From Lasiosphaeris hirsuta (Eukaryota; Ascomycota; Sordariomycetes; Sordariales; Lasiosphaeriaceae): DNA of 64,000 bases. The notes under the pieces were generated by a model, which saw only the letters and a list, made by a program, of their open reading frames with translations, was not told where the DNA came from and made no database searches. The position numbers and the translations under genes are program-made. The stretch is taken from NCBI GenBank assembly GCA_030549175.1, contig JAUKUA010000002.1:1178001-1242000 (forward strand). Reading direction: 5' to 3'. The stretch's first letter is position 1, and each line of letters begins with the position of its first letter. This document shows, in pieces, positions 4,371 to 62,510 of this stretch.

Positions 4371-5994
4371 CGGTCGGGTGCACCTGGTTCACTTGCCAGG
4401 GGGGTGGACTGACACCCTGGATCGCGATCAGCCCCGCAAAATAAACGCCAACGCGAAAATCAAGGGCGCCAAATAACATGGAACTTACCGAAATTCGCGG
4501 AATGGCCCGGTCAATTGCGCGTAGTCGAAATACGGCGCAGAATGTGTACAGAGTACGGTTTCGCAGGAGCAGAATCGAGAAATCGAGGGCCACGGTCAAC
4601 AAAGGTTGCGACAAGTGGAGGAATGTATTTGTGGTCGAGGTAAGGAAAGGACCAAGGGCTGGGCAGAAATGGTGGGTTTAAGAAACGCGACCGACTGGGG
4701 GAAGCCGGGACCCCTCACCTCTTGGTTCCGCCTGCTTTTGGTGTGGCGACTAAAAATGCGCCAACAATCTACTTTTCTGCCGGTCGCAGGACGCGCTAGC
4801 ACACGAGCTCACCTGACAGACCCAAGGAGCGCAGGCACCAGTCGTGTCACAGCCCCAGCCACCAGCCAGAAGCGTCACTCTTCCGCGATGAAATTTCTCA
4901 TGATTTTTCGAGACTTCTGTGCAAATTCCGGTTCGGTGGACACCAAAATGCATTTGGCGTTTTCTTTTCCTTAGCTATTTCTTTTTCCCCTTGCCGCAAG
5001 GAGTAATTCCGATTACATTTCCACATGCACGTAGTGCAACCGGTGTTTGGTGCGACCGGAATCGGATCAAACAGGGTTTGCGGTTTAGGTGCTGGGCGTC
5101 ATCCGACCCACTTTTGATTTAGCCAGCCTTGGGCCGACAGGTGCGAATACCCTCCTGCATTTGTTAGCGCGCAACACGCAAAGTGATGTCTACCTACCAC
5201 CTGATGGTACTGAAGCCTTGAGAAGGCCTCTCCAGCACCAAAAAAAAAAACAGGCATCTTGAGCTTTTTACACACCCTCTGCTACTATTGAGCGCTCCCA
5301 TTGATTTTAAATAAATATATAGAGCTGGATCAGAAATGGTTGCTACGACATCATTGATGTGAAGTCACTCGCTAACGGGCAAGTGAGGCAAGAGAAGAGG
5401 AAACTGGCAGATGGTTTCAGTGAACCATGATCTCCGTCCTGAAAACAGCCCAAAGCTCTCCAGTATCAAGTGGAAATGTCCAGAACATTATCCCAGTATT
5501 ATCCCAGTAGTCTCTTTCTGCGCCTAATGTGCTCCATAGATGCCGCACCATCTTGCTCTTTCCTACTTGATGGTAAATTAATATCATGATGTCTTGCAAA
5601 AGCGTTGCAAACGGGCAGTCAGCAAGGAGTGATTTGACGGTGCATGTGTTCGCCGATTATTGGCACCACGCCCCAACATTAGGCCGGACCAATTAAGCCG
5701 CTGCAAGCCAGATGTGGCTGCCTGCGATGACTGTGCCATTCGCCCCAGGCAGTCGCCACTTTTGGCAACTCCCTCAGCCACAATTGAGAACCCCCCCCCC
5801 TTCAGCCACATCCCCATGAAACTGATTCGACGTCGAGCAGGGGCGCAAGCACAGGTCCACCGACCCAGTCTAGCAACCCCGCAAGGCTGAGAGTGCGACA
5901 GCAACCGCGGACAAGTTACATCCCGCCTCCACGATCCCATCACGCCCGCATCCCAAGCAACCAGCCTTGAACCTGCAAGGAGGTCGCCGTCAAG
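4371..5994. other. Divergent intergenic region
   Basis: It separates the minus-strand gene ending at 4370 from the plus-strand ARPC3 gene. It probably holds both promoters. A run of ten C lies at 5791-5800. No gene is supported. Confidence 0.5.
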
Positions 5995-6961: not shown

Positions 6962-8866
6962 TCATGCCTTTGGGGTGTCAGCAGCCTCCGACTCCGCCGC
7001 TGAGCCCGTCTCAAGCTTTCTCCGCTTGAACTTGCCCTTAGCGGCCACCTTGCCCGCGGCAGGCTTCGCCCTCCACGCTGTGAACACATAGCCGTCGGTA
7101 CCGCCGCGCTCAGTCATCAGCGGGTGCGTCCTACCCGGCAGAACCTGCCAGCGGCGGGCGCGGCTCGTCTGGATCGACGTGCCCAGCAACAGCGTTGGGT
7201 TGAGCGGGAATTGCTCGCTGCCCTCCCAGCGCTCCAGCTCCTCTACCGTCTTGGCTACCATCTCGGGCAGCGTGCCGCTGGTCCACGCGGTTCGCCGGCT
7301 CACGCTGAAGCAGTCAGCGAGAGCCGCAAGCGGCTCAAGAGTGGGCGAATACATCGATACTGGCGCACCACCGGCCAGCAGGGGCAGGGTGTGCTTGAGG
7401 ATGCTAATTGGGTCCATGGTGCTCGCGCACACTAGACCTGAGAAGCCACCTGCGCGCGTCGCCTCGACGACGTGCCTGGTGCGCGCGAACCTCCTGCGCT
7501 TGCGGTGGAAGTTGCCCCGCCGGCTGGGTTTCCACGAGCCCAGTAACTCGGGCGATGCAGTCAGTGGTGGGGTCGAGTAGGCCGTGTCGAGCTCGGGCTT
7601 GAGTAGTTGCAGCCAGGTGAGACACATGAGATGCCTGCAGAGGGGGTGTTCGGCGTGACTTGGGGCCACGGCGTCAAAATCCCAGTAGCCGAGGAACGGC
7701 AGACTCGGTTGGCTGGCGCTGTGGACGACCGTGATTGTGTTGGTTTGCGAGTAGGGGATCGCAAAGTCGGAGGAGCGAACTTTCTTGGGTCGCGCCCCGT
7801 CAATTGCCCTGTTGGCCGGGTCGTCAGCATCCGCCATGTCGACGTCGCCATCTTGGTTGTCCTCTGCTTCCTTCTCGGCCTCTCGTCTCTCCCTCTTCTC
7901 CCTCCTTGCCTGCTCGTCCAAGCTGTCTTCGTCCTCATCCAATTCGGGGAACAGGACGCCCATCCTCTCGGCAATCGCCGCGACCAAAAGGCCACCTGTA
8001 TCGTCCACCACAAGCCATCTGCCGTTCAGCAGATCCCCCTGGAGAGGGGCCAGAGCCTCTTCGCCCTGTTCACAAGTTGCCATTGGATCGCCGAGATAGA
8101 CGCTATCGCCGCCGTAGTGCACATTTCCCCACGAGCCCACAAGAGCAATCATCTCAGCGCGCAAATCCAGAATCTTGCTAGCATCCCTCTCCTCGAGCTG
8201 CCAGTGCGCAAGGTTCGGCACGTCGACGGGCAGTATTTGGAAGCGCCGGATGTACTTTTTGGTCTTCAGCAGCTTATACTTTGCCAGACTGAAACTTGTC
8301 TTTTGATCAAGCGCCGTGTGCGACAGCATCAGCTTGGCGATCACGTCCTTGCCCGCATTGCTGCCCTCCCGCTTGAGCTCCTCGATCTCTTCCTGTGTCA
8401 ACGTCTGGCGGGCGTTCTCGTCGATAACCTCCCCGCTCGACCGCGTTACGAGCTTGCCGCTCTCGGCATCAACCAAGGTGAACTCGACACCATCTTCAGC
8501 GGATATGACGGGCTTAGCGGCATCGACTGTGGGCGCGGAGCAGTCTGGCGATTCCTCGTCGGCAAAGATCTCAGCGTACAACTCGGAGGCGGGGACTATG
8601 CGGATGCGGGAGTACTTCTCGTCTGGGCGCTGGTCCTCGATCTCGAAGGTAACGTGGTAGGGTCGCTCGATGATTAGGTTTGCGGGAAAGGAGCCGTATT
8701 TGCCTAGCGAGATGGTGCTGGGGCTGTCAATCGAAGGGTTCTTTGTCTGCACGCACTCGGGACGAGGGCTAACTTACGCGTTTGGTGTAACGAGGATGTT
8801 CCTGGTGACACCTGAGGGCAGTCTGATGGCGACCCAGGTATTGGGGCGGATGATGGAGGAGTACAT
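6962..8866 (-). CDS. TRM6: tRNA (adenine-58-N1)-methyltransferase non-catalytic subunit TRM6/Gcd10
   Basis: Join 8866-8778 and 8723-6962 with a 54-nt intron; phase closes for 616 residues. The first exon encodes a start typical of Gcd10 (an N-terminal segment with W.AIRLPSG). Exon 2 continues with the SLGKYGSFP block and the region T..EIE.LK that marks the family. TRM6 binds tRNA and partners with catalytic TRM61 in the nucleus to make m1A58, needed for initiator tRNA stability. An acidic/basic charged linker sits in the middle, and a Lys/Arg-rich C terminus (KGKFKRRK) could bind RNA or act as a nuclear signal. It is longer than the yeast protein (478), through the linker and tail. There is no catalytic SAM motif, as expected. 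Confidence 0.93.
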
Positions 8867-25144: not shown

Positions 25145-26489
25145 TGTGTTATTGTTGAGAAACACAGCTTCAGTTGTGACTCATGGAAGGAGGATTGTGG
25201 ATACCGTCGAAGTTGCAGTGATGGGGCGGCGAGCGATGCAGTCGCGAACTTGGTCTATCCATGTCGGTAGCGGCTTTCGGCGGCAAGATTTCCTATCCGA
25301 TGCAAATACCGTAAAGTGCTCTCGCGCTGAGAATGCTGACTCGACTAATAGACCCTGGAGTTCACTATCAGCAAGTTCAACTGGGTGGTGGTGGGTAGGA
25401 AGTGTGGCAGCAGAATTAGGTGGATTGCGCTTCATGACAATGGCACTGCTAGCACTCGGCCCTGGCGATTCAGCGTGCGATCGGGGCTGCTGTTGGCTGG
25501 ATGAGCTGCCATCCAAATGCTCGGAAGCCGCGAGGCCACTTTGAGGAAGAAGCTGTGACGGGAGATTGCGTGATGCATATCTTGATGCACAACTTGTGAT
25601 ACAGTGTGGTGCAGTTGACAGGTCAGTGGTCAGGTTGGACAGACCAAGAGGTTGATAGCATCTGACGTGATGAAGGCGCTCGAGCTCGAAATTGAAACAG
25701 TGACTTGACGCCTCTAATCTTTTAGTGTAGTGTGCTAGGCAGAATCGTGGCGGTAGGTAGGCCCGGTAGGCTCCATCTCGAGCTTGGGCCCGTCCGCAGA
25801 TGTCAGCTCCAGGGCGATCTTGCCGCGCTAACGCATGGCGGGTCAGTCCCCTGCCAGAACCGTTAGGGCTCACGAGGGCTTTTGCCACTATCGATAAGCG
25901 ACCGACACAATCCACACACTAATGGGCAAGAGAGGCTGGGGAGGGGCGAGCGCGGCTGCTTTTGGCTGGTTGTTTTCGTCATCAGGATTCCCCAGCCTTC
26001 CACGGGCAGTCGCATCATTGTGTTTGTGTCAGCACAATTCCCATCCCTCGCTCCCGCGATCCCGTAGAGGGCAAACAGCTCCAGCCCAATTGCACTGCAG
26101 GTGCACCCCTCGCTCGCGCCTGCTTCTCTTCTCCGACAGCAGTTCTCGTGGTCCGTTCTTTTCTGATGCTTTGAGACTGTCGAGGCTTTGGTGTTCTTCG
26201 ACTTCTCTTCTCGAGTTCTCCAAGTTCCCCGACGCACGCCTCTTTGTTTGGGCCCAGCGCCCTTTCCTGCGCTCATTCGCCACCCTCCGTTTCAGCCCAC
26301 GCGCTTGTTTCCTCGTCTGACGCATCGTCAACACGCCCACAAGACACCGTCCGCGTGTCGCATGCCCGTTGCTTGCTCCATGGGATAAACATCCTTCGTT
26401 CCCCTCCCACACCGCTGTTCCCGCATTATTCATCCCGCCATCCTCTCAACGCCTGCACGCTGCAAATAGCAGAGACGCGACAAATCGCA
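25145..26489. other. Upstream region of the Tcp11-like gene
   Basis: A 244-codon minus-strand open frame (25,915-25,181) is Ser/Pro/Arg-rich with no domain; I could not support it as a gene. From 25,920 to 26,489 the plus strand is C/T-rich, like a long 5' UTR or promoter of the next gene; the frame is open upstream of ATG 26490 back to 26244. Confidence 0.4.
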
Positions 26490-29400
26490 ATGCGGCGGGC
26501 ATCCCTAGACCTGACCGAGCCGTCTCGGAATCTCGAAGAATCCGTCGGCTCGCCATCCCCAACAGCCCCCGATCCTACCCTCGACCTCTCTCTCCCTCCG
26601 CCCAACGAAGAAATCGAGCTTGCCGACGGGGACGGCGATGTCGACAATGACGACGACGCCAAGATCTACACCCCGCCCCCACATATTGCCGCCCGGCTGT
26701 TTTACGGCCGTCCCACAAACCAGACACGGCGCAAGGATAGCGCTGCCTCATCGCGTCGCAACAGCATCTCTTCCGTCCAATCTCGCTCCTCGCATGGCTG
26801 CACTCGCGACATTGGCGTGCAGAGCAAGCATGTCGCTCAACATCTCCGTCGAGCCTCGATCCTCGAGGACCGCAAGGCCCGCCTCGCCGACCGCGCAGCC
26901 CATGCCGAGAAGGTGCGCCTTCGGGCCGCCCTCGCCAAGTCTGCCCCTAGGGATATAAGTGTCAGCGAGGAAAGGGCCTTGGCTGCTGCCCAGGCCCGTG
27001 AGCGGAACCTGGCTGAGATTGCCGCCGCCTGTGCCGAGGAGGTGAAGCGGGCCAAGGCCATCGCCGAGAATATGAAGGAGAAGCGTGAGCAAGAGATTCG
27101 CAAGATGCGCTCTCAGATGGAGGAGCGTCTCGCCGAGGCCGAAAGGAGGCGAGAGGAGTTGCGCAGCCGGAATGCTGCAAAGAGCCGTGGGAGAGAGCGC
27201 GGCCACAGCCTCGGGACACCGAAGCCTACTTTTGTCGAGGTGATGCCTCAAGTCAAGGAGGTCAAGGAGCGCGACACCAGCCCAATCCGCGAAGACGTCG
27301 CCGTTGCCAAGATCCAGTGGTGGTGGAGGGCTTCCCAGCGGAAGCAAGCCGTGGCCGACTTTGTGGCCTTGGGATTGTCCATTGATGCTGTTCGGGAGAC
27401 CTCGTTTGAGGAGGTGACTCGGCTGCTCTCCCAGGAAAAGGTGTTGTCGGTAACCGCGCGAGCCCTTCGCATATGCGGCTTGAATGAAGGTGCTGCGGGC
27501 TCTGTTGAGGAGATCGCGGCCGTACGATCGTTCCTAAGTGCCTTCCTCATCCTCGGACACCCGTCCCAGGTGCTGAGCAACAAGGAGGGCAAGGGGGAAG
27601 AGGAGCAGGTCGGCTCCCTTCTAGCGAAACCCATCCCCAGGGACGATCTAGCTAATCCGCAGTCACAGGAGCTGGTGGGCAAGGCTAGAGATTTGCTCAT
27701 TTCGTTCGAGAACATCCTCGGGCGATTGACGTCGTTCAACAGCTACACGCCGCCGCCGGCCCTTTTCGATGCGTTCCCCGAGGCATACGCGACCTTTTAC
27801 AATGCTTTTATCGCATGGAAAGCGCGTGACTCGAGTTCTCTAGTCGAACTGATGGTGATGCAGTTTGTCGAGCTGGACGCGATCTGGGAGTCAGTCAAGG
27901 ACAGCACCGACGGGTCCGTTGACCAGGTCTATAAGGAGAGTATTCGCAACAACCAGTTGCTGCTGCTGGTCCGGATCAAGAAGCTGGCCGGTCCTACCAG
28001 GGGCAAGCAGATGGTCACCGAGGCCGTCAGAGCAGCCCGCAAGGCGAAGGCGAAGAAGCCGACGGGAGACACCAGGCCCCGATTCGCCGATGACTCCACC
28101 ACCGAGACGGCGATGGGGGTTCTCAGCGCGGAAGATGGTGACGGGGACACTCAAATGCAGGCCCCAACGCCGCCGGCTACACCACCACGGAAGCGCGAGA
28201 CTTTCAGGGTCAACGTCGTGATTCCCAATGCCAAGAGTCTTTTGCCCGACAACCGGGTTGTTGTGCACGAGCTTGCCATTAACAAGGAGTTCCGTACCGA
28301 GCCCCATGAGTATCACGAGCAGCAGGAGCATCTGCTTGCGCCCATATTCCAGGATATGCGGGCGACAATGCAGGCTGACCACCAGGAGGCCCACTTCTTT
28401 CTATTGCTGAAAGTTGCCGACTCCATTCGGGAGAAGCTGCAGCGTCTGGTGAAGCCGGGTAACTCGATGCACACATTCATCGGGGAGATGCTAGACACCG
28501 AGGTCGCACGCCGCCAGTTTACAATGGGAACCTTTTCTTATGAGAAATTTTTCCAGGCAATGGGGTCTCTGCTCCCGAGGCTCTGCGCCCCGGTCCGCGA
28601 TGAAGAGGTCACGGCACTCATCGAGGAGAAGCTTAGCCAGGGTAACTATGTGGACCGCATTGAGGCACTCAATGGGTTTATCGACGTCATGCTTAGCGAT
28701 TACGCAAACTACTTGCTGCAGTTGGCGGCCCCTCGGCTTATTGAGGAAGCGCCTACCTACGAAGCAAAGGTTTTCGCGTCCAATATTGAGTCGGGGAAAT
28801 ACGATCTGTCGGCAGCGACTACCGCGTGGCGAACATCGCGACGGAAGCTCCTGGCCGAGGCAGCGCGGCGCGACCCTGAGGGTATCAATCTTGCGGCTAA
28901 CCGTCCGGCCGCAAACCGCATCTACAACCAGATGCTCGTTGACTTGTTCACGCAGCTCTCTCTGGTCCCGGTTGGCGAGGTTCCCGAGATGCTGCTGCTC
29001 GACCATAAGCGGGCTCTTGAGGCAGGCCGGCTGACGAGGAGGATCATCACGACGGGAGCAATTCTGTTGCAATGCAAGAACCTCCTGAAGCGAGATGTGC
29101 GTGCGCCCTGGAAGAACGAGGCGCAGCGTATCCTGCTCGTGCTCGAGAAGAGCGAGTCACAAGGCGACATGACGCTTGATGCAACGGTGGACGGCATCAT
29201 GGCGGCCCTCGAAGCGGGACGTTCGATGCCGGCCGCGACCAAGGTGCATCTCAGGGCGCTCGTCAACAAGTTTGTCGCTGCCAGCGACGAGGCGGCCACG
29301 CGACGTGAAAGTGAACCGCGTGAGCCGGTGCTGCGTCTCCTTCTGAACCGGCTGCGCGGGTATATCTTGGCGCGGCTGGCTACGGCTTCAGCGAGTGAGA

Positions 29401-29615
29401 AGGTCAAGGCTACGAGCACAGCCGGCGAGAAGCTGGCAAGCTTGGGCCTGGCGGAGTTCTTGGACAAGATCCGCGATATGGTTGAGATGATGAGCAAGGT
29501 ATCATCGGTCGACCGCGATGCGCATAGCGGGTGGTGGGATCAGGTTGGCGAGGTTGTTGAGAAGGAGGGCGATGTCTTTGCTGCAGGTTCGGTATCACCT
29601 GCTAGGTCGTCGTAG
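26490..29615 (+). CDS. Tcp11 / Sok1-like protein
   Basis: A single exon of 1,041 residues from ATG 26490 (MRRASLDL). The open frame extends to 26244, but that part has UTR-like composition. The N-terminal third is disordered and acidic, then Arg/Ser-rich. Residues about 120-270 form a long charged, Ala/Glu/Arg-rich coiled coil. An IQ-like segment AKIQWWWRA follows, then the large helical Tcp11 domain to near the C terminus (blocks such as ARDLLISFENIL, EMLDTEVARRQFT, MLSDYANYLLQL, RIYNQMLVDLF). In yeast, Sok1 is a high-copy suppressor of loss of PKA; animal TCP11 interacts with cAMP/PKA signalling in sperm. It lies among housekeeping genes and is clean. Confidence 0.93.
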   Translation: MRRASLDLTEPSRNLEESVGSPSPTAPDPTLDLSLPPPNEEIELADGDGDVDNDDDAKIYTPPPHIAARLFYGRPTNQTRRKDSAASSRRNSISSVQSRSSHGCTRDIGVQSKHVAQHLRRASILEDRKARLADRAAHAEKVRLRAALAKSAPRDISVSEERALAAAQARERNLAEIAAACAEEVKRAKAIAENMKEKREQEIRKMRSQMEERLAEAERRREELRSRNAAKSRGRERGHSLGTPKPTFVEVMPQVKEVKERDTSPIREDVAVAKIQWWWRASQRKQAVADFVALGLSIDAVRETSFEEVTRLLSQEKVLSVTARALRICGLNEGAAGSVEEIAAVRSFLSAFLILGHPSQVLSNKEGKGEEEQVGSLLAKPIPRDDLANPQSQELVGKARDLLISFENILGRLTSFNSYTPPPALFDAFPEAYATFYNAFIAWKARDSSSLVELMVMQFVELDAIWESVKDSTDGSVDQVYKESIRNNQLLLLVRIKKLAGPTRGKQMVTEAVRAARKAKAKKPTGDTRPRFADDSTTETAMGVLSAEDGDGDTQMQAPTPPATPPRKRETFRVNVVIPNAKSLLPDNRVVVHELAINKEFRTEPHEYHEQQEHLLAPIFQDMRATMQADHQEAHFFLLLKVADSIREKLQRLVKPGNSMHTFIGEMLDTEVARRQFTMGTFSYEKFFQAMGSLLPRLCAPVRDEEVTALIEEKLSQGNYVDRIEALNGFIDVMLSDYANYLLQLAAPRLIEEAPTYEAKVFASNIESGKYDLSAATTAWRTSRRKLLAEAARRDPEGINLAANRPAANRIYNQMLVDLFTQLSLVPVGEVPEMLLLDHKRALEAGRLTRRIITTGAILLQCKNLLKRDVRAPWKNEAQRILLVLEKSESQGDMTLDATVDGIMAALEAGRSMPAATKVHLRALVNKFVAASDEAATRRESEPREPVLRLLLNRLRGYILARLATASASEKVKATSTAGEKLASLGLAEFLDKIRDMVEMMSKVSSVDRDAHSGWWDQVGEVVEKEGDVFAAGSVSPARSS

Positions 29616-30872: not shown

Positions 30873-33800
30873 ATGAATCTTACCGTCGCCAGTTGGAGAT
30901 TGAGCTTTGTTTTTGCCCGAGCGCCTCCTAGAGCAACAGTTTCACCTTCAGCGTCGACGCCTTCAAATATCGCCCGCGCCTGCCTCCCTCGATCGGCTAG
31001 AGTGCTCGCCCAGCGGTTCCACACCCCATCCACTTTCCCCAGATCTAGACCCATAGCTCTATCTGCGCGTCAAAGACTGCGCGCCACAGCTTTTCAAGTT
31101 ACCTCTCTCTCCACCTCCCAACGGCACTGTTCTATGGCATCTAAGATCGCAATCATGGTAGACCGAGACACCCTCCCCAGCGACTTCAAGCCGGCCCACT
31201 ACGACCTGGCCATTAGGGATCTTGACTTTCCAAGCTGGGCCTACAAGGGCACTGTTAGGTGAGTTGTCTGAACATTATTCCATGACGCCTTCCTGACACC
31301 TCCAGGATCGACGGAGAGCTCATCAAGCCTACCGCCCAGATCGTGCTAAACACGCTGGAGCTCAAGCTCGTCAGCTCCAACATTGTCGTCAGCCAGAACA
31401 AGAGCGACCAGTCATGGCAGGCTTCCGGCTTCACCGAGGACAAGAAGTCCCAGCGCACTACCATAACGTTCCCTGAGGAGCTGCCCACGTCATCCAAGGT
31501 CTCCCTGCTCATTGAGTTCACTGGTGAGCTCAACCACGATATGGCTGGCTTTTACCGCAGCCAGTACAAGCCCGTGGCCCCCCCTGCCGCTAGTGTCCCC
31601 CACGACGATGAGTTCCACTACATGCTCAACACCCAGTTCGAGGCCTGCGATGCCCGCCGCGCATTCCCCTGCTTCGATGAGCCGAACCTCAAGGCCACCT
31701 TTGACTTCTCCATTGAGATCCCCGCTGACCAGGTCGCCCTCTCCAACATGCCCGTCAAGGACACCCAGACCGTCGGCGACAAGAAGCTTGTTTCCTTCGA
31801 GCGCTCCCCCGTCATGAGCACCTATTTGCTCGCCTGGGCCGTGGGTGACTTTGCGTACGTCGAGGCCTTCACCGATCGCAAGTACAACGGCAAGCAGATC
31901 CCCGTGCGCGTCTATACCACCCGCGGCCTTGAAGAACAAGGTCGGTGGGCCCTTCAGCACGCCCCCAAGATCATCGACTACTTTTCTGAGCAGTTCGAAA
32001 TCGACTACCCTCTGCCCAAGAGCGACATCCTAGCCGTCCACGAGTTCACCCATGGCGCTATGGAGAACTGGGGACTAGTCACCTACCGCCTCACGGCCAT
32101 TCTGTTTGACGAGAACCTGTCTGAGATCAAGTACAGAAACAGGATTGCTTACGTGGTTGCCCATGAGCTCGCGCATCAGTGGTTTGGTAATCTTGTTACC
32201 ATGGACTGGTGGGATGAGCTCTGGCTCAACGAAGGCTTTGCTACGTGGGCTGGATGGCTGGCGACGGACCATTTGCATCCGGAGTGGGAAGTCTGGGCGC
32301 AGTTTGTCAATGAGGGCTTCGACCAAGCATTCACACTGGACAGCGTCCGCTCGTCACATCCGATCCAGGTTGCGGTTAGGGATGCTCTTGACGTCAACCA
32401 GATCTTTGACAAGATCAGCTACCTCAAGGGATGCTCCATGATTCGCATGCTTGCGTCAAACCTGGGTATCAAGACGTTCCTCCAGGGCGTCGCTATTTAC
32501 CTCAAGAAGCATGCCTACGGTAACGCAAAGACAACGGCGCTGTGGGAATCCCTGAGCGAGGCTTCGGGTGTCGATGTCAACACTATTATGGGCGCCTGGA
32601 TAGAGAAGATTGGCTTTCCTGTACTGACAGTCACCGAGGGCCCGGGATCGCAGGAGATCTCGATCAAGCAGTCCCGCTTCCTATCGACGGGCGATGTCAA
32701 GCCCGAGGATGATGAGACTACTTGGTGGGTCCCTCTTGCGCTCAGGGGCAAGCTTAACTCGCAGGGCGTTGAGTCGCTGGCTCTCACCACAAAGGACTCC
32801 ACCATCAGCGGTGTCAGCGATGACTTCTACCAGCTCAACACCGACGCGACTGGCTTTTACCGCGTGAACTACCCCGAGTCGAGACTCAAGAAGCTCGGCA
32901 CGCAGCTCGGCCAATTGAGCACTGAGGACAAGATCTTCATCACCGGCTCCGCGGCCGATCTCGCCTTCGCAGGATACAGCACAACCGCGGGTCTGCTATC
33001 TTTTATCCAGGGCATGAAGGCCGAGACGCACTACCATGTTCTGAAGCAGGCTCTCGATGCCATCGGAACCCTCAAGTCAATCTTTGCCGACGACGCACAG
33101 ATCAAGGCGGGGCTGGAGAAGTTCGTCCTGGAGCTGGTCGAGAGGCCGCTGAAGGAGGTTGGCTGGGAAGCCAAGTCCGGAGAGGACTACAACACGAGCC
33201 TGCTGCGGACCCGCCTTCTTACCAGCGCTATTGCAAACGGCCACCAAGAGTAAGTCTTTTTTTCTGCATCCGATGATCCAATGCTCACCTGTCACAGGAC
33301 CACCGAAGCTAGCTTCGCCCGCTGGACTGCCTTCCGCGCCAACCCCGCCGAGAACCCTATCCCAGCGGACCTTCGCGCCCCCATTTACCGCGCCGCCCTG
33401 CGCGCCGACCCTGCCGGGACTGTTGCCGCCCTCAAGCACGAGTGGTTCACCACTCCGGCAATTGATGGAAAGGAGATCTGCCTCCAGAACCTCGGCCACG
33501 CCACCGACACTGGCATCATCTCGGATATCCTTCTGCCATTCCTCTTCAACATTTCCCCCCCGGCTGCCGCCACCGAATCCATCCCGTCGGGTGATATGCA
33601 CATCCTGGCGAGCAGCCTGTCGGGCAACCGCGTGGGACGCCTGCTGCTGTGGGCGTATCTTCGCGATAACTGGGATCAGGTAAATGCGAAGTTGGGAGGG
33701 AATCCGATCTTGATCGACCGGTTGGTTGGTCGGAGCTTGGGCAAGTTTGCGGATAGACAGGTCTTGGCGGAGATTGAGACGTTCTTTGCGGGAGTGAGCA

Positions 33801-37362: not shown

Positions 37363-38471
37363 GAGGGGGTCGTCTGGTTGGGCATTTCAACACCAGAGTT
37401 GTAATTTCTCTCGGCCCGTCCATGTTAACAGTTTCGAGATAGGTCCGGTACGGTACAATTGATATTTAGAACCCGAAACTCTGAAAACACAAGTTTGAGT
37501 ATATTTCAAAAAGATGGAGCGCTACTACTACCAGTTCTGGGGCGAGTGTTACATCGAGGGCATGATGGATGGCTACGCGGTGCAGCTGCAAAACGACTCG
37601 ATAGACCCAAAGTCGGATATCGAGCGGATGCCGAATATGGTGTTTGAGTTGCACTGATGGGGTAAAGGGGGTATTCCAATCCATCGATAGTGATATCCGG
37701 GCTTAAATGGAACGTGACAGCTAGCATGTACACTAGGTAGGAACTAAATGCATCACAGCCGTGTTACACCCCATCTCGGTAATGCGCACATCAGCGCCAA
37801 CCGAGCCAGCCACGGCATTGAGAACGCGGCACTCAACAATCCTCCCGAAAGGCCCAGACTAAAACTGCATGGGCGACATGCAAACATACCTCAGAATTGT
37901 GCAATCCATATATATATCCCCAAGGCATAGGACCCCTGACATGCTTAAATGGTGCCAAGGATCTAGACCAATCCGGCCGGCGAGGCGATACGTCCTGTCT
38001 GGGCTATAGTGGACGCGTCATTCGAACCCTGACCCGACTACGTCTTGTGCCTGTATATCTTGGTGCCGGCATCTAAAGCCGAAGGACAAGGGGTATATCG
38101 CGGCGGCTAAGGGACGGGCTTCCTTATCATGGCGAACGGCGGGCCAAGTTCCGGAAAAACCACGACGATTTGGTTAACCCGGATATATCACGGCGTCGTT
38201 GGGCCCAAAAAATACAGAGATAAAATGATTTGCCCTTATCGTTGCGGCCTGGACAACGAAACGTAGCGTTGGGTGGGGTTAGTTCCCTCGCGATGTTCCC
38301 GGGATTCGGTAGGTAGGTATATATATATAAATGGGATATATATCTGGGTGGATGATCTCGTAGAGTTTCTTGGCGATTTGGCGATTTCTGCTCTGTATAT
38401 CTCTTTGACTCGTCTGGTATGTGTCTGTTATTGACGTCTCGCTCCTAAACTTGGTTCAAGCCCAGGTAGCA
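37363..38471. other. Intergenic
   Basis: AT-rich, with a TA microsatellite near 38,320-38,345 and GTAGGTAGGTA words. No gene supported. Confidence 0.5.
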
Positions 38472-39926
38472 ATGCGCCTCCTCGGCGAGCTCCCCTTTCA
38501 GGGGCTACCCCTTCTGGGGCTGCTCCTAACCTCCTCGCTCATCCTCGGCGCTCCCAGCAGACCCGGGAGATCAACCCTCCAAAACTTGCCCTACATTCTC
38601 GGCACCTCCCCACCGCCGTCCAACACGTCCACCAACACTACCAGCCCCCTCTGGCCCTGGACGCACTACCTCCCCCCGCCGTCCCTAGATCCATGGTACG
38701 CCCCACCCTCGAACTGGACCTCGTCGTCACCGGGCACGCCCCTGAAGATGCGCGCGCACGCCTACCCGACCATCGCGATCCGCAACGCCCACGACACCTT
38801 CCAGATCCTGTACCGCTCCTCCGACACCAACGGCGCGCCCTCATGGGCCGTGACGACCGTCTTTATCCCAACCTCGCACGCCACCTGCCCACAATCGACC
38901 CTGAACTGCTCCCACGCCATGGTGTCCTACCAAGTCCCAACAGACTCGGCCTTTGTCGACGCAGCCCCCAGCTTCCTTCTGCAGGCGCGTGAGCCCTACG
39001 GCGAGATGCGCGACCTGCTCGCGCGCGGCTGGTTCGTCGCCGTGCCCGACTACGAGGGGCCCAGCGCGAGCTACTGCGCCGGCAAGCAGGCTGCGCACGC
39101 GACGCTGGACGGGCTGCGGGCCGCGCTCGCCGTGGCTGGCGAGTTTGGGTTCCGCTCGGCGGACGCGCGGGTTGGGTTGTGGGGGTACAGCGGCGGCGCG
39201 TTTGCCACGGCGTTTGCGCTCGAGATGGCTGCGAGTTATGCGCCCGAGCTCAAGATCAGTGGCGGTGCGGTGGGTGGGCCGGCGCCGAATTTGACTACGG
39301 TCGGGCAGTTGATGAATGGGCGCGATACCGCGGGCTTGGTGGTGGCGAGTGTGGTGGGCGTGACGAAGCAGCATCCGCATGTCGTGGAGTTTCTGAAGGG
39401 CCGGTTGAAGGATAGCGGGCCGTTCAATGAGAGCGCCTTTATGGCCGTGGTGAATATGACGGGGGTGGACGCGCTAGAGAAGTACGCCAAGCAGAACGTG
39501 TATGACTACTTTGAGAATGGCGCCGCGGACTTGTGGCATCCCATCGTCCAGGACGTCATCGATGGGGACGCGGTCATGGGACGACACGGAGCGCCGAGGA
39601 GCGACGTGCCCGTCTTCTTTTACAAGGCCGTGGCGGATGAGATGAGTGTGATCGGGGAGACGGATGCGCTGATTCAAAGGTACTGCGAAAAGGGAGCCAG
39701 TGTGTTGTATCATCGTAACGAGCTGGGTGGCCACAATGACGAGCTGTGGAGCGGGAGGTTGAGGGCCCTGGATTTCTTCTCTCATGTTCTCGAGCTGGAT
39801 GACGGGAGCAAGAAGATGGTGAGCGGCATCAACCTGACGTTGCCTGATAGGGGGTGTCTGACGCAGAATGTGAGCGTCCCGCTGGACGTGCTGGAATTGT
39901 TGCCAGACTGGTGGTGGACTGGCTGA
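38472..39926 (+). CDS. Secretory lipase (LIP family)
   Basis: A single exon of 484 residues from ATG 38472 (MRLLGELPF). A hydrophobic segment at residues about 10-26 (LPLLGLLLTSSLILG) is a signal peptide. The mature protein has many N-glycosylation sequons (NTS, NTT, NWT, NCS, NLT, NES, NMT, NVS) and the nucleophile GYSGG with Ser240. An Asp in the VFFYKAVADEM region and His in LGGHNDEL probably complete the triad. The layout matches Candida-type secretory lipases, which are exported and hydrolyse triacylglycerols. It lies among intact genes, divergent from nothing close. Substrate is inferred from the family. Confidence 0.92.
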   Translation: MRLLGELPFQGLPLLGLLLTSSLILGAPSRPGRSTLQNLPYILGTSPPPSNTSTNTTSPLWPWTHYLPPPSLDPWYAPPSNWTSSSPGTPLKMRAHAYPTIAIRNAHDTFQILYRSSDTNGAPSWAVTTVFIPTSHATCPQSTLNCSHAMVSYQVPTDSAFVDAAPSFLLQAREPYGEMRDLLARGWFVAVPDYEGPSASYCAGKQAAHATLDGLRAALAVAGEFGFRSADARVGLWGYSGGAFATAFALEMAASYAPELKISGGAVGGPAPNLTTVGQLMNGRDTAGLVVASVVGVTKQHPHVVEFLKGRLKDSGPFNESAFMAVVNMTGVDALEKYAKQNVYDYFENGAADLWHPIVQDVIDGDAVMGRHGAPRSDVPVFFYKAVADEMSVIGETDALIQRYCEKGASVLYHRNELGGHNDELWSGRLRALDFFSHVLELDDGSKKMVSGINLTLPDRGCLTQNVSVPLDVLELLPDWWWTG

Positions 39927-55860: not shown

Positions 55861-58710
55861 TCAATAGCCATCGTGGAAGTGCCTTCTGATCTCTCGAACT
55901 AGGTCACAGAAAGCAGTCTGGACGTTGGAGCCCGTCGTCGCATCGGCCTCGACAAACCGGCACTTGAACGACTCGGCCAAGGCTTTCCCCTCCTCCGTAC
56001 TCACTTGTATTGCCTCTGTCTGTTCACAGTTGTTGTCGACAACCACCATTGGGAAGTAATCATCCGTGTCTTTGGCTCGAAGGATTTCCTGGTGGAACGT
56101 CATGACATCTTCGAAAGAACCGCGGTTGGTGGCGCTATAGACGAGCAGGAAGCCTTCACCCGCCCTCATGTACTGCTCCCTCATCGCCGAGTACTCTTCC
56201 TGGCCGGTTGTTTCGAGGATATCGAGCTCGCAATGCTCACCGTCAACTGTACATCGTTTCCGGTTGTCGTAGTCGTCCAGTCTCCAGTCTGTAGAATCGT
56301 ACATCTCGGCAGAGTGAGGAACCAGAAACTTCCTGAGGTCAGAGCTGGGGCATGACGGCGATCGTGGTGTTGGACATCCAACTGAGACACTAACCTGGAG
56401 CGTAAATCTTCCTTTGTCCGACCCCATTCCTCCAATCACGGCAATTCTGTACTCCAACGGGTGCATGCTGGAAGGAGTCCCGGGTATCAGTGGTGCAAGG
56501 AGACCTCTTCTTCTGAGGTTTTGACGTTTTGTCCGCGTTTCCTCGAGTGCTTTTTCCCATTCTCTGCGCCGCGCCTTAATCGGCAACCTCACAAAGAATT
56601 TGCGCGTCGACCAAGAAGAAGAGGTGGACCTGTTAACCCAATTGATCTCGAGGCTATCACCATATGCGACTGGGAGAAATGTCAATCTTTCGGCATGCCA
56701 ATTCCATCGTGTTTTCCTTCATCCCGTGCACACTCACTATAGCTTTTCTGGATGTCTGGAGTTATCCGGAGGATAGTTCGCATGTCTTAGCCTTGTATTA
56801 TTTGGGCAATGTAAAGTTTCGCCGGTTGGTTCCCTGTTCGGCGGGAATCCCTTTGCTGATTTGCCGGAGAGACAAGAATGACGGCCCTTGCGAAAAGGTA
56901 CAACTGCGCGAGAGGCTAAATGACACAGCCTCAGTTAGAAAATAATCAAAATGGCAAGCAGGTGTGAGGCCGGAGAATTCGTACGTTTTTCTGAGCTGTC
57001 CTCTCGATGCTGGCGGTGGCGGTGTCTTCGCAGAGAAGCAACTCGCCACACATGTGGACCAGAGCTTGATCCGATGCATCCAGTGCTGCAAGCAGTGCCA
57101 CTTTGGCATCATCGCGGTCTCGAGACTCTTTAGCGATGCGGGCCTCTTCAAGCACCGTTTCCACTGCCGCCATCGCTGCTTTGATCGATTTGCCATCTTC
57201 GTCTTGCGCAAGCTCCTTTTTGCCGCATGTCAGCATAACCCTCGCGGGGTCGACAACGCCCTTACCTCCAAGAAAGCCTTGTACTTGTCCAAGCGATGCG
57301 CTAGCAGTGGGAGAACTCCTATTACATCTCCAATCGGATCTCGCAGCCCATCTAGAACACATGATGACGGTGAAACTGCTCCCTTGAGCGTTATTGCTGT
57401 TTGCAATGCTTTCTTTGCGCGTTTCTCTCCAGAGACGAGCTGGGCATAGGAGGCTCTGGCTGGCTCTGCCCACATTTCAAAGAGCCGAAGCTATGGCGAG
57501 TCGAACCGCCGATAATTCCCCAAAGCTAGTCCCTCTAATCGGATAAGAAATCGTCTTTGTGTATCAATGAGTTGGCGAGACTGTTGCAAGAAGTCGTCGG
57601 CAGCTTCCATATCTCCTACCAGCACAATTCCGTGTGACCTCACCATTTCATCCCGGGATCCAGCGAGGTATTCCAGTCGAGCGACGTAGACTCTTTCCTG
57701 ACGGACAAGTTCCTCGACAGCGAGCGTCTGTGGCGACAGCGGATTCTTGAAATCGTGTAACCCGGGTAAGGAACCAACGTCGACAGCTTCGATCACCCCC
57801 GCATCAACCAGCTTAGAAAGGATTTGGTTAACGAGTCGAATGACCTGGGGTAGAATCGAAGTCAGCTGCTGATGATCTGGGGCGCTGGATGACTCTTCAC
57901 CTTGACATGACCTGTGGTGTCGTCATACAATAGGTCGGTTACCGTGAAACAATCCTCTATTGGTATCCCCTGCCGGGTGGAACAGGCTTGGATGAACTCG
58001 ACGATGGCAAGTTTGGTCGAAGGCGTGGGTAGCTCATGGGACAGGAACTCTTGCCATGTGTCGCGGTAATGGTTATCCAACTGGTCGTAAAGCAGCAACA
58101 GAGGTCCGCCGCGTCGAAACACCCATATCAGAATTGTCAAAGGATCCGAATCCGGACGCACGGAGCGCTCCCGTGCGATGATCTGATTCAACGAGCATTG
58201 CGTCAACTGTGACAGCAGGGCTTCTGTCTCGACACAGTCGTGAAAGATTGATCTCAGGTGTACGCTGGCGGGAAGAACGGAGAGCTTTCCTGCTTTCTGT
58301 GGTTCTGGTCCGTCAACGTAATGCTGCTGGTTATGGATATCGCCGGGGTGTATGGGTAGCGCCAGCACTGAGATGTCGGAGATATCGCTGAGGCTCATTC
58401 CTGAAAAGATTGACCACCCATGACTTCGAGCGACCGATGAGCGCATGGAGAAGTCCATTGTGTCTCTCTTGATCCTGCGGTACACTCTTGAGGCCTTAAG
58501 GTTCTTCTCAAACGGCAATTCGAAGAGCGAGCGGCGGTTCTGCACGGATTGTTCTTGCAACCCACCGGTCTCGGGGCCGCCATGCGAAGGGGAAGACTGT
58601 ACCGATACTCTCTGCTGAGATGGATTGGCAAATGCTTGGTCGGCATCTGTGCCGAGAAAGATCTGGGCCAGTGCTTGATTGCTTTTGAGCAGGGCGTCCA
58701 TGTTCGACAT
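55861..58710 (-). pseudogene. Cdc24-type RhoGEF (CH-like, DH, PH) fused to a Ras-like GTPase domain, two nonsense codons
   Basis: Exons 58710-57901, 57844-57266, 57215-56985, 56915-56738, 56669-56395 and 56328-55861; introns 50-69 nt, one with a TTCTAAC branch, and every phase closes (846 codons). Residues about 190-285 match the Cdc24 N-terminal region (LTILIWVFRRGGPLLLLYD; VEFIQAC; TVTDLLYDDTTGHVKV). About 310-540 is DH (VEELVRQERVYVARLEYL; RRFLIRLEGLA; LAHRLDKYKAFLE). About 541-645 is PH (QLYLFARAVILVSP; SLEINWVN; RREWEKALEETR). Residues 668-846 are Ras-like (LDILETTGQEEYSAMREQY). One exon carries both the PH end and the Ras start. TAG at 57491-57493 (residue 388) and TAA at 56787-56789 (residue 583) interrupt it. 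GTPase motifs are degenerate (GGMGSDKGR, no GKS; VVDNNCE for NKxD), and there is no CAAX box. Confidence 0.85.
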
Positions 58711-59930
58711 GAGCTGCTTCTGATGATCTTCAGCACCAGTGATTATGCGATAGTAAGATGTTTGGGTACTATGTATGGGCCCCGGCTACATAGCCACTTT
58801 ATAAACGCTTTACGAACTCGGCCATATTATTACATATGCCGACCCCATCTGTAGATATCTCTGGTGGGAAGAGGAATATCCTTTTCTTATCCTACACATG
58901 GCGAGTTTTAGCGTCTACTAGTACGTACTTTCCCGAAAGTGAAGCCTGCCAGATTTTCTCCTTCTTACTTCCCATAGCTACCTTGTCGTAGATGACTGAC
59001 CCCTTATTATCGAGCAAGGTACACATGTATAAGCGGCTTTAATGTGCGCTTTTCCACCTAGTGACCTCTACGTGTTACGACAGTATCGCATTTAGCGCCG
59101 TGTATGTACTTGCCCCCCCCCCCCCCCCCCGTCCCTCCTGTCCGGTACGGGGGAACAGCCACATACCAAGCGTAGCCGTAGCAACCCCTCCGAAGTACAA
59201 GGCCACAATGGACGTCCTGGCGGATACCTAAGCCGCCTGGTCACCAGAGGACTGGCCGGTGGGCGAGGGGGTGGGAATGGTCGACATTTTACAGCTTCAA
59301 AATAACAAAGACAGCTGAATATAATCGTTGACGACACCTGAAGAGAAGAGAGAGAGAGAGGGAATAGGGATGGGAACAGACGTGAAAACCCTTTTGCTTA
59401 GACATCTTGGTTTGTTGGAGGTGGTGCCCCACCTCGAGGGTGCAGGGCGCACACGCCACCTCACCTGGCTAGTGCCCTTTGGGCCACACCTAGATAGCTG
59501 TTGCAGGCCAGGGAAATCCTGGCCCGCAACACCACAGAATCGATCACCGTTTCCCATTGCTCTGTCTCGCCCACATGGTTCCTTCCTCTATCGTGGTGGG
59601 AATTCGAATGGTTGCCAGCTATGGCAGCCACGCCGGGCGGCCGCACGGCCTACAGCGTTGAGGGGAATTGAGGCAAGTACGAAGGCTCTAGTTAGAAGAG
59701 AGACTTACCTATTTACCCTTGCTCTTAGTGGAGTAGTAGAAAGAGTGACATAGGCATAAACGTAATATCAAAGCTATCTTGACCGCCTTACGCTCTTAGT
59801 CCGATTTGCTATCTTTTATAACTAGATATACTAAATACCTAACAATCTAGTCATCAGGATTGTGTCTCGGAAGAATCTTTTACTTGAGGGCGTTAAGGTT
59901 GGCCGATATTGTTCGGAAAGAAACTCCCGT
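58711..59930. other. Intergenic with long C run
   Basis: A run of about 18 C near 59,113-59,130, a GA-rich repeat near 59,345-59,360 and a GGCCAGG/CCTGGCC hairpin at 59506-59524. No gene supported. Confidence 0.45.
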
Positions 59931-59936
59931 CTCTCC

Positions 59937-60440
59937 CTAGTAGTAACTAATTACCGTGTAGCTGAAGCAACTTATCATAGCTACATGGGTCTTGGTGTTG
60001 ACTAGGCGTGAATCTAATCGTTGATGGTCGAAGCTCGGAGGCATTCCAGAACGGATTGTTATTAAGAAACCCTGCCTAGCTTGAGAGAGGGCTAAAAACT
60101 CTACATTGGAGGGAAGACCAACCGCTAGCCCTGGAGATAAGCCGATAACAGTACTTTCCGACGAAGATACGTCTCTGGTGGGTGAGATAAGAACAAACTC
60201 TGGTCTAATCATGTCTTTCTCCGCCTTAAGTAGGCCTTTTGGACTCACCGCCAGAAGCATTGCTCTTATTCGGATACCCTGCTTCGCGACATGCTTAAAC
60301 TAGCTGAGAGTTTGTTTTTTGAACAACGAGAGGAAATAACGACAGAGGGGACAACTTTCTGCCGAGGCGATGAGCTGTTGTGGCCACCGTGCACGCGCTC
60401 TTACCTCCTGCTACCTGAACTCCCATGCCATCCATCACAG
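59937..60440 (-). pseudogene. Fragment of a second HET-type gene
   Basis: One minus-strand frame reads WPQQLIASAESCPLCRYFL, FKKQTLS, then TAG at 60300-60302, then FKHVAKQGIRIRAMLL, LISPTRDVSSSESTVIG and QGFLITIRSG, ending at 59937. The C-P-L-C-R module preceded by A-S-A-E resembles the N-terminal Cys module of HET proteins, including the one at 52.4 kb. The TAG fits TGG to TAG. No HET core motif (LSYxWG, CIIQDD) is present, so the domain itself is lost. The assignment rests on the N-terminal module only. Confidence 0.45.
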
Positions 60441-62510
60441 TCTGGATGATAGCCTTCGATATGAGTAAGATCCGGTCGGCGTACTGGGAGAGGGGTTACC
60501 TATCTTAGCTGCTTAATGTTCGAAAATGGGAATGGTCGAATGGCATGACCTATCCAATCTTCATCGTTCTAGGAGCCGAGAACTGTCGCGATGCAGCGCT
60601 GTCCCGGGCCTTCTTCCTTTGCTTACCGTTGTGCTTCCACTTTCCAACCCCACTTACTACTCTCTCCGATGCTCCCTTTCGACAACACAGTTAGTCTATA
60701 TCGGTAAACGTTATATCTGTAGTTTAGAGACTTAGAATTTGACTCGGGTCATTGGAGTTACGTTCTGAGAACGAGTGGTAGTTTCAGTGGGTCTATTAAC
60801 GATGGTTGTTTGTATGGGCAAAGGAAAACGGTAGTACTTGGCGGTGGACTGGTGTCCCAAAACTGGGTCTAGGAGCGGATCCTTGCGACGTACACACGAT
60901 TTTAAATCACGGTAATTATAGCCGAACTCACCTCGGCTCAGGGAGGTACTCGCTTTGCCTCACCCCCTGCTCAGGCTGTGCGACTAATCCGGACTTGGTC
61001 AGAAAAATGTTGTGGGAGGTAACTAAAGAGGTAGGTACATTGTTTGGGGATGTTGGACTGATGAATTAGGGGTGGACGCTCAACACTAGTGCAGGTGAGC
61101 CTGATGGCTTTTTGCATCGTCTCGTGTAACTTGACAGACTTGAGTCAACTACATGTAGTAAATGCATCTAAACTAGTGGCAACTCTATGTTTGAGCATTG
61201 CATTCCGTCATGACAAGGGAAATAAATGATTCCCAGCAGAATGCCCAGAGGTTCCCCAATACTGGAAGGCATGGAGCGAGCCGACCGCCTGGTGACAGAC
61301 AGTAGCCGCCACGAACTGAGCAAGGATATGTAAACTAATGCAAACACGCCCAACTAAACACCTGGCGATGCAACATGGATGCGGAGATCGGGGCTCAAAG
61401 TAAAAACCGACGGATGTGGAGCCGGCGCGCCCTGCATCACATTCACGGCACGAAATTGCCGGCCGCTGGGTATCTCAAACAACCAGCATAACAATATCGA
61501 CCTGGTATATTTCCGCTTCGGCGAGGCAGCCGTGGCCTGGGATTTCATTTTGCCAAGATGACGCCCCAACTCCCGCTGCCTTCTCGAAAATCTTTCAATA
61601 TTTGGTATCAGGCCCTGCTACAAACCCCAGCTGTAAAGTAAACGGCCCAGTTCCTTGGCGGACGTGTTACTTCTTATCAGGGCTGGACTGTTACACAGAG
61701 CTACCCAGACCGTTACACAGACCTGCTGGGTCAATCAAAGGGTTCGGTGATGTGCCGGCTATTGTGACCATAGGTAATCAAATGCTCGGCAGATGTGATA
61801 TCAGGTTGGGGCCATCTCCGTTTACCCCGCGTGGGAGTTAGCCAGCTCCAGGGCACTGAGAGCGGGCCATGTTTCGATGGGTGCCATTGACCGCCGCCAT
61901 ATCGTGCTTGAGGACTTTGGCCCTGTCAAGATGAAATTCCTGGCCAGCAAAGGAGAGTGGGTAGACCACCGGGTGCTAGTGGGACAATGTGATATGTGAG
62001 ATGGGATCCCGAGTCTTGGCAACAAGGTTGAAAGCTCCCAGTCCCCTCGGCTGACGCACGGCACATGCGAGCGCCATGCATCCCATGGGGGAGTTTTTGG
62101 GGACGGCACCCATTGAACCCCAAATATGAGGTTGATGTCGGGGTCTCAAACTCGGCGCCCCGGCTGACGTCTGGCGTGTGAAAGCCGACTTTAAGGCTGT
62201 TCGGCTTTGGTACCCCACTCGCTCCAGTGTTTCCCAACTCGAGCAAGACAAATACAAATACCAGAATGTCGTCGATCTCACCCCACCCAGGGGCCATCTC
62301 TTCTCCCACACCCTTCCGCATCTAGTTCCTAGTTCTCACCCGTACCGCACGGGGTCGTCACTGCCACCATGCCTTTTGGAATCCTGGATTGCAAGAAGAT
62401 GGAAGTCGTGCCTGGCACGGGTACGCTCCCCTTCACTCAACACCTGCCGGGGTGTCATTACGGTTCTTTTGTACACGCTAACACTTCGGCTCCTGCCGTG
62501 CCCAGCTTTC
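60441..62510. other. Long stretch without supported gene
   Basis: Short, overlapping chance frames on both strands. AT-rich to 61,200, then mixed. The last 300 bases are probably promoter and 5' UTR of the transporter that follows. Confidence 0.45.

What the first reader, a model, noticed from the sequence alone, without database searches (positions are those of the whole stretch)
55861..58710. GEF-GTPase fusion: Cdc24-like CH/DH/PH continuous with a Ras-like domain
The splice phases of six exons close and join a Cdc24-type exchange-factor body to a full-length Ras-like domain. The exon 56669-56395 is one uninterrupted frame that begins in the last PH strands and helix and ends in the Ras G1 region, so the fusion does not depend on a guessed intron. 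Known Cdc24 proteins end in PB1; I know of no described protein that carries a small GTPase instead. The GTPase part lacks GKS, has T-T in place of T-A before the G-Q pair, altered NKxD and SAK motifs and no CAAX box, so it may be a regulatory pseudo-GTPase or a decoy held next to its exchange factor.
Basis: partly seen in the sequence, partly recalled or inferred. Interest (0 to 1): 0.92.

Follow-up and report, generated by a model that had tools for sequence, protein, structure and literature searches.

The report
Broken fungal GEF and Ras fusion
The sequence is a broken copy of an undescribed fungal gene family in which a Cdc24-type switch activator carries at its tail a Ras-shaped domain that has lost the parts needed to hold GTP; an intact copy lies in the same genome and relatives occur in other fungi.

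Summary
The fusion is real. Six exons with GT-AG introns (58710-55861, minus strand) join Cdc24-type CH, DH and PH to a Ras-like domain in one frame. 21 database proteins carry Ras behind such a body: 5 Sordariales, 2 Dactylonectria, 14 Fusarium. One, P0021, maps exactly to a second locus of the window's genome, which identifies it as Lasiosphaeris hirsuta. The window copy is a pseudogene: exon 1 (a helical bundle weakly like PF17111/HeLo-like) is missing and two in-frame stops are present, one at an otherwise invariant position. The Ras part is a pseudo-GTPase by motif in every row: of 22, Asp119 is kept in 0, Ser145 is Asp in 22, GK[ST] is kept in 4, CaaX in 0. In the two cross-order pairs compared it is better conserved than PH and DH. 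The N-terminal module also sits directly on a pseudo-Ras (Clohesyomyces) and on a G-alpha (Xylographa). I read the family as modular, possibly immune-type, signalling proteins; the mechanism is inferred. Nine literature searches found no description.

The parts
57901..58710 (-). exon 1 of the window model (homologous to exon 2 of the intact C2 copy): conserved segment + CH domain
   Evidence: model; CDC24 PF06395 6.8e-13; 66% identity to P0017 aa 156-426
58324..58539 (-). conserved 72-aa segment (SRVYRR..DTMDFS.RSSVAR..WS.FSG.SLSDIS..SVLALP), 90% identical between the two copies of this genome; low confidence in both structure models
   Evidence: pLDDT; same segment in P0068 and P0015
57266..57844 (-). 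exon 2: DH domain, first part
   Evidence: 56% identity to P0017 aa 423-620
57491..57493 (-). in-frame TAG at a position that is tryptophan in 20 of the 20 other rows with a residue there (21 others, one gap)
56985..57215 (-). exon 3: end of DH
   Evidence: 40% identity to P0017 aa 591-701 for C7:1234967-1235296
56738..56915 (-). exon 4: first PH strands
56787..56789 (-). in-frame TAA in exon 4
56395..56669 (-). exon 5: last PH strands and helix, linker, Ras beta-1 and degenerate P-loop, one open frame
   Evidence: same exon content in the intact C2 copy
55861..56328 (-). exon 6: rest of the Ras-like domain, TGA at 55863-55861, no CaaX
   Evidence: Ras PF00071 1.3e-33 for window:55861-56334
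55882..56475 (-). pseudo-Ras domain (with intron 56394-56329)
   Evidence: phmmer with the P0003 Ras part, model aa 665-840
58711..60700 (.). sequence standing where the family's first exon should be: no N-terminal coding match, TpA/ApT 1.18 against 0.51 in the gene
59413..59575 (.). dispersed repeat, about 165 bp, at least 40 further matches in the genome
   Evidence: 40 of 136 candidates scored

Best explanation
The locus is a decayed member of a conserved family, found here in Sordariales and Nectriaceae, of the order: helical bundle (weakly PF17111/HeLo-like), conserved unstructured segment, CH, DH, PH, pseudo-Ras. Shown by sequence: the fusion, its orthologs, the loss of nucleotide-binding motifs in all rows examined, and the loss of the first exon plus two nonsense codons in the window copy. 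Inferred mechanism for the living members: DH-PH acts on a Rho-type GTPase and is restrained by CH (as in Vav1 and Cdc24, recalled). The C-terminal domain is a Ras-shaped docking surface that GTP cannot switch. It keeps much of switch II and would bind a Ras partner (exchange factor, GAP, effector, or a foreign protein that attacks Ras). That binding would gate the GEF and, through the N-terminal bundle, membrane localisation or oligomerisation. My probability is about 0.9 for what it is and about 0.35 for this mechanism.
For: 21 fused predicted proteins from 7 genera. Exact mapping of all 1011 residues of P0021 to G000:C2 in 7 exons; of the 5 window junctions four fall within one residue of a C2 junction and one within three. 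Motif losses in 22 rows: D119 kept in 0, S145 is D in 22, K16 kept in 7 of 18, T35 in 5 of 20; in 11 comparison Ras rows: D119 11, S145 10, K16 10 of 10, T35 11. P0003-P0021 identity 50% in Ras, 36% in DH, 17% in PH; window-P0003 55, 32, 27. AlphaFold models of P0017 and P0003 show a helical bundle, CH, DH, PH and a Ras fold; the P0017 model matches Vav1, Dbs DH/PH with Cdc42, and K-Ras in the PDB. Invariant position turned to a stop; first exon absent.
Against: The Ras trees do not prove one origin of the pseudo-Ras: open in the careful tree; in the quick tree the 23 rows are one side of a branch with support only 71. On the body tree, presence of Ras needs 13 changes, because rows without Ras nest among rows with it; I read most of those as cut gene models, unproven. 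PF17111 shows at E up to 0.1 in only 6 of 15 fused rows scanned, always under its cut-off, and a PF17111 search of this genome (11 matches) did not pick up exon 1 of the C2 copy. Ras identity is lower than DH identity in 6 of 11 pairs compared. The window copy's departures at conserved columns (DH 5/35, Ras 5/40) lie within the range of the five other Sordariales rows, so it died recently or its status could be wrong. No binding, interaction or expression data exist here.
Confidence: 0.7

Rival explanations
1. Two neighbouring genes, a GEF and a Ras-like gene, wrongly joined by the exon model.
For: Some family members in databases end before Ras (for example P0038, P0039, P0043). The window model has a methionine just before the first Ras strand.
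Against: 21 database gene models join them; PH end and P-loop share one exon in both L. hirsuta copies; in the models the PH helix and Ras beta-1 are 4 (P0017) and 10 (P0003) residues apart.
Confidence: 0.04
2. The window copy is a working gene: the stops are assembly errors or are spliced out or read through, and translation starts at 58710 without the N-terminal domain.
For: The rest of the frame is open, all five introns have GT-AG ends, and departures at conserved columns lie within the range of the other Sordariales rows.
Against: Two separate stops, one at an invariant position, plus loss of the first exon beside repeat-bearing sequence. No protein of this locus appeared among the hits, though short annotations would have been out of the length range.
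Confidence: 0.1
3. The Ras-like domain still binds a nucleotide in an altered way: the acid lost from NKxD is replaced by the new Asp in the SAK loop, a swap of the base-recognition acid.
For: Loss of D119 and Asp at 145 go together in 22 of 22 rows and also in P0015; 4 of 22 rows keep GK[ST].
Against: K16 is lost in 11 of the 18 rows that have a residue there and T35 in 15 of 20, so most members could not hold phosphate and magnesium in the known way (inference).
Confidence: 0.1
4. The pseudo-Ras is a useless passenger that is decaying everywhere.
For: P-loops differ from row to row; several gene models lack the G1 part; Ras identity is below DH identity in 6 of 11 pairs. Ordinary Ras is among the most conserved proteins (recalled), so 38-68% between members is a strong relaxation.
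Against: Ras identity equals or exceeds PH identity in 10 of 11 pairs, and exceeds both PH and DH in the two cross-order pairs; switch II residues are largely kept (D57 17/22, G60 17/22, Q61 18/22).
Confidence: 0.15

Closest known systems
Cdc24/Scd1 (fungal Cdc42 exchange factor)
   Same: CH (PF06395), DH and PH in the same order
   Different: helical bundle and conserved segment in front; pseudo-Ras in place of PB1 (PB1 in Cdc24 recalled; no PB1 hit)
p190RhoGAP with pG1/pG2 pseudo-GTPase domains (recalled; Pfam PF19518 weak hit E 0.031)
   Same: pseudo-GTPase domain in the same chain as a Rho regulator
   Different: there a GAP, here a GEF; the pseudo-GTPase here is Ras-type and at the C-terminus
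Roco proteins that join a Roc GTPase and a RasGEF, such as Dictyostelium GbpC (recalled, no call)
   Same: GTPase-type and exchange-factor domains in one chain
   Different: CDC25-type GEF and Roc-COR; here Dbl-type GEF and degenerate Ras
Fungal NLR proteins with HeLo-like N-termini (PF17111 listed as Helo_like_N in PMC9815663, passages only)
   Same: weakly related N-terminal domain (PF17111 5.2e-5 in P0003; 7.7e-8 in P0068)
   Different: no NACHT or NB-ARC hit in the scanned rows; signalling domains instead

Membership tests
Cdc24/Scd1 | CDC24 calponin domain | tested here: met
   PF06395 6.8e-13 in window; 8.3e-16 in P0021
Cdc24/Scd1 | DH (RhoGEF) domain | tested here: met
   P0021 4.1e-8, P0003 3.9e-9, both over the cut-off; under it in P0017 and others; window DH not hit by Pfam in pieces but 56% identical to P0017
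Cdc24/Scd1 | PH domain | tested here: met
   PF15411 9.4e-8 in P0012, 2.2e-7 in P0028; no PH hit in P0017, P0020, P0021, P0003; strands and helix in the models
Cdc24/Scd1 | C-terminal PB1 domain (recalled) | tested here: not met
   no PB1 in Pfam scans of window pieces and 15 fused rows; Ras there instead
Ras small GTPase | P-loop GxxxxGK[ST] | tested here: not met
   window GGMGSDKGR; GK[ST] in 4 of 22 rows, 4 rows without any residue there
Ras small GTPase | NKxD | tested here: not met
   window NNCE; Asp kept in 0 of 22
Ras small GTPase | SAK | tested here: not met
   Ser replaced by Asp in 22 of 22
Ras small GTPase | CaaX end | tested here: not met
   0 of 22; 7 of 11 comparison rows end in CaaX
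Ras small GTPase | Ras fold | tested here: met
   Foldseek of the P0017 model: Ras chains shown with TMt 0.72-0.79; this is the ortholog, not the window copy
pseudo-GTPase | no nucleotide binding or hydrolysis | not testable with these tools
   motif loss only
fungal NLR | HeLo-like N-terminal domain | tested here: inconclusive
   absent in the window; PF17111 in 6 of 15 fused rows, 5.2e-5 to 0.086, all under the cut-off; C2 exon 1 not found by PF17111; over the cut-off in P0068
fungal NLR | NACHT or NB-ARC domain | tested here: not met
   none in Pfam scans of 15 fused rows
pseudogene | in-frame stops or lost coding exon | tested here: met
   two stops, first exon absent

The most novel reading that the evidence does not exclude
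A fungal immune-type receptor family outside the NLRs: a HeLo-like, cell-death-type N-terminal module with a conserved segment is grafted onto copies of the cell's own G-protein machinery (Cdc24-type GEF with pseudo-Ras, pseudo-Ras alone, G-alpha). The dead Ras copy works as a bait or guard for attacks on Ras signalling, and the genes turn over by birth and death, of which the window copy is a recent death.
Probability: 0.22. Interest if true: 0.88.

Novelty: new variant of a known kind. Interest (0 to 1): 0.64.

Why it matters
An exchange factor of the Dbl/Cdc24 type with its own Ras-type pseudo-GTPase would be a new way to couple Ras and Rho signalling in one chain. The strict pairing of two changes in the base-binding loops (Asp119 lost, Asp at 145, in 22 of 22 rows) is a clean, testable case of how a GTPase becomes a scaffold. 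The same N-terminal module on a GEF, on a pseudo-Ras and on a G-alpha suggests a modular receptor family, possibly linked to fungal cell-death domains, that NLR surveys would miss because it has no nucleotide-binding NLR core.

Tried and rejected
Clustering with immunity genes: I listed HET (150 scored of 380 candidates), NB-ARC (14) and NACHT (55) matches in the genome. By these capped lists the nearest HET match to the window copy is about 95 kb away (C7:1138820-1139116) and the nearest NACHT match about 177 kb. The C2 copy has a NACHT match under the cut-off about 16 kb away and a HET match about 31 kb away. A gene with the conserved segment at C2:516346 lies 2.5 kb from a HET gene. HET genes are dense here, so I draw no conclusion.

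RIP as the cause of the stops: the gene itself shows no RIP-like bias (TpA/ApT 0.51), only the upstream sequence does (1.18); rejected as a general cause.

Single origin of the pseudo-Ras by tree: not shown.

PF17111 as a firm label for the N-terminus: under the cut-off in the fused rows, and a search of this genome with it missed exon 1 of the C2 copy; kept as weak.

dN/dS: not done, since no DNA of close relatives was at hand.

Literature: nine searches in the held open-licence library. Seven aimed at the fusion or the pseudo-GTPase and two at HeLo-like domains, NLRs and PF17111. Several demanded many terms at once and so were narrow. None listed a paper that I recognised as describing this architecture; papers not opened were judged by title and start of abstract only. 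PMC12258605, PMC9815663 and PMC5870968 were seen in passages only. The last lists a 'pleckstrin, CDC24 calponin' gene in a population-divergence outlier of Fusarium graminearum; whether it belongs to this family was not tested.

Full report
What is there. On the minus strand of the window six exons (58710-57901, 57844-57266, 57215-56985, 56915-56738, 56669-56395, 56328-55861) with five GT-AG introns of 50-69 nt join into 2541 nt divisible by three, with two inner stops (codons 388 and 583) and a final TGA. The open pieces match CDC24 calponin (6.8e-13) and Ras (6.1e-33) in Pfam, and Ras proteins in the PDB at down to 1.2e-37. The DH part gave no Pfam hit in pieces but aligns at 56% with P0017.

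Where it comes from. The window lies in a 44.4 Mb assembly of 14 contigs. Protein P0021, named as from Lasiosphaeris hirsuta on a contig of 602,790 bases, maps exactly, all 1011 residues in seven exons, to contig C2 of this assembly, which has that length. The window is therefore L. hirsuta (Sordariales), and C2:477411-473970 is an intact second copy.

The fusion is real. Searches with the window frames found full-length relatives: one search gave P0003 and P0012 (among 14 hits); one search gave P0017, P0020, P0021 and P0022 (among 12 hits). A profile of these six gave 52 proteins at E up to 1e-10 (7995 candidates scored, a capped set), of which 20 list PF00071. Of the 20, 19 also list CH and/or RhoGEF, and the last, P0042, shows RhoGEF weakly (7.5e-5). 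With P0012, which one search did not list, that makes 21 fused rows: five from Sordariales (Schizothecium vesticola, Podospora conica, Podospora didyma, Apodospora peruviana, L. hirsuta; placement other than L. hirsuta recalled), two from Dactylonectria macrodidyma (Hypocreales), fourteen from Fusarium. Some of these gene models lack a part (P0056 and P0042 the CH, P0012 part of DH). The last PH strands and the Ras P-loop share an exon in both L. hirsuta copies. Of the five window introns, four lie within one residue of a C2 intron and one within three residues in gappy columns.

The window copy is dead. Exon 1 of the intact gene (aa 1-150) has no match in the window next to the gene, and in the genome its matches lie elsewhere. 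The sequence that stands there has TpA/ApT 1.18, against 0.51 in the gene and 0.69 in the whole window, and holds a repeat of about 165 bp at 59413-59575 with at least 40 other matches. The stop at 57493-57491 falls on a position that is tryptophan in the 20 of 21 other rows that have a residue there. At columns conserved in the others, the copy departs in 5 of 35 (DH) and 5 of 40 (Ras) cases; the five other Sordariales rows range from 3/36 to 10/37 and from 3/39 to 9/42. So the loss looks recent. By the body tree the window copy groups with the Schizothecium and Podospora conica genes and unnamed relatives (SH-aLRT 94, just under the star threshold), and by the Ras tree with P0017 and P0020 (96/85); P0021 lies outside.

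The Ras part is a pseudo-GTPase by motif throughout. Of 22 rows (21 plus the window), Asp119 of NKxD is kept in 0, Ser145 of SAK is Asp in 22, Lys117 is kept in 3, Lys16 in 7 of 18 with a residue, Thr35 in 5 of 20, GK[ST] in 4 of 22, CaaX in 0. Of 11 comparison Ras rows (hits with an ordinary-looking Ras domain) the same positions are kept in 11 (Asp119), 10 (Ser145), 10 (Lys117), 10 of 10 (Lys16), 11 (Thr35), and 7 end in CaaX. Residue numbers are those of H-Ras, from recall. Switch II is better kept: Asp57 17, Gly60 17, Gln61 18 of 22; the window itself has Glu at 57. P-loop columns are unsure in rows whose gene models lack the G1 part (P0031, P0035, P0036, P0037 have no residue there; P0032, P0033, P0040 align poorly).

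It is probably not simply decaying. In the two cross-order pairs compared, identity in Ras, DH and PH is 50, 36, 17% (P0003-P0021) and 55, 32, 27% (window-P0003). Over all 11 pairs Ras equals or exceeds PH in 10, but exceeds DH in only 5. Against this, ordinary Ras is far more conserved than that (recalled), so the domain is clearly relaxed.

Anatomy of the intact protein. AlphaFold models of P0017 (mean pLDDT 72.3, pTM 0.53) and P0003 (72.6, 0.50), each on an alignment of 39 sequences, show an N-terminal helical bundle (about 1-183), a low-confidence stretch (192-308 and 181-304), CH, DH, PH with its C-terminal helix, and a Ras fold starting 4 and 10 residues later. Foldseek of the P0017 model matches autoinhibited Vav1 (4.8e-9), Dbs with Cdc42 (9.9e-9) and K-Ras (1.9e-7). 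The N-terminal bundle matches PF17111 weakly: 6 of 15 fused rows scanned, from 5.2e-5 (P0003) to 0.086 (P0012), all under the cut-off, and the same profile run over this genome gave 11 matches, none at the C2 copy. This Pfam entry is called Helo_like_N in PMC9815663 (passages). The low-confidence stretch holds the best conserved segment: 90% identical over 72 aa between the two L. hirsuta copies, against 58% over most of the first window exon. In the DH part the ER.Y of the first conserved region is kept in 22 of 22 rows, and the Lys of the KY in the third in 18 of 22 (lost in P0021, P0046, P0056, P0033); the role of these residues is recalled.

Other architectures of the same N-terminal module. 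P0015 (Clohesyomyces aquaticus, Dothideomycetes) has the module (43% identity to P0003 over 287 aligned columns) followed directly by a pseudo-Ras (55% over 170) with no CH, DH or PH hit, also with Asp at position 145 and without Asp119. P0068 (Xylographa pallens, Lecanoromycetes) has it (33% to P0017 over 306 columns, 1e-35) in front of a G-alpha (7.5e-50), with PF17111 over its cut-off. P0023 and P0025 (Fusarium) have it with CH-DH-PH and no Ras. P0030 adds a subtilase behind the Ras, which may be a gene-model merge.

Mechanism. Best supported: a Rho-type exchange factor held in one chain with a Ras-shaped, non-switching docking domain and a HeLo-like end. What binds the pseudo-Ras, and whether it restrains or aims the GEF, is inference. 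Against a simple history: Ras presence needs 13 changes on the body tree, which I put down mainly to cut gene models without proof, and the Ras trees do not settle a single origin (with P0015 in, one side of a branch at support 71; with P0015 left out of the group, p-AU 0.162, not rejected).

Known or new. Database entries with this architecture exist under automatic names. Nine literature searches, several of them narrow, listed no paper that I recognised as describing it. The kind, a pseudo-GTPase in one chain with a Rho regulator, is known from p190RhoGAP (recalled). I found no description of the combination with a Dbl-type GEF or of the shared N-terminal module.

Noticed in passing
59413-59575: Dispersed repeat of about 165 bp with at least 40 other matches in the genome at 79-99% identity; possibly a short mobile element.
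   Followed up: partly
L023 (G000:C2:511500-521000), ORF 4640-5179 +: A separate gene with the same conserved segment (51% over 63 aa), 2.5 kb from a HET-domain match; its downstream domain was not identified.
   Followed up: partly
P0030 (Fusarium sp. NRRL 52700): GEF-pseudo-Ras protein extended by a subtilase (PF00082 3.2e-21); a true fusion or a merged gene model.
   Followed up: no
P0068 (Xylographa pallens): G-alpha subunit carrying the PF17111-type N-terminal module and the conserved segment.
   Followed up: partly
59113-59130 (minus strand): Run of 18 G near the lost exon.
   Followed up: no
6965-8773 (-), 26175-29612 (+), 31286-33250 (+), 38409-39923 (+): Ordinary neighbours: Gcd10p, Tcp11, peptidase M1, secretory lipase.
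   Followed up: no
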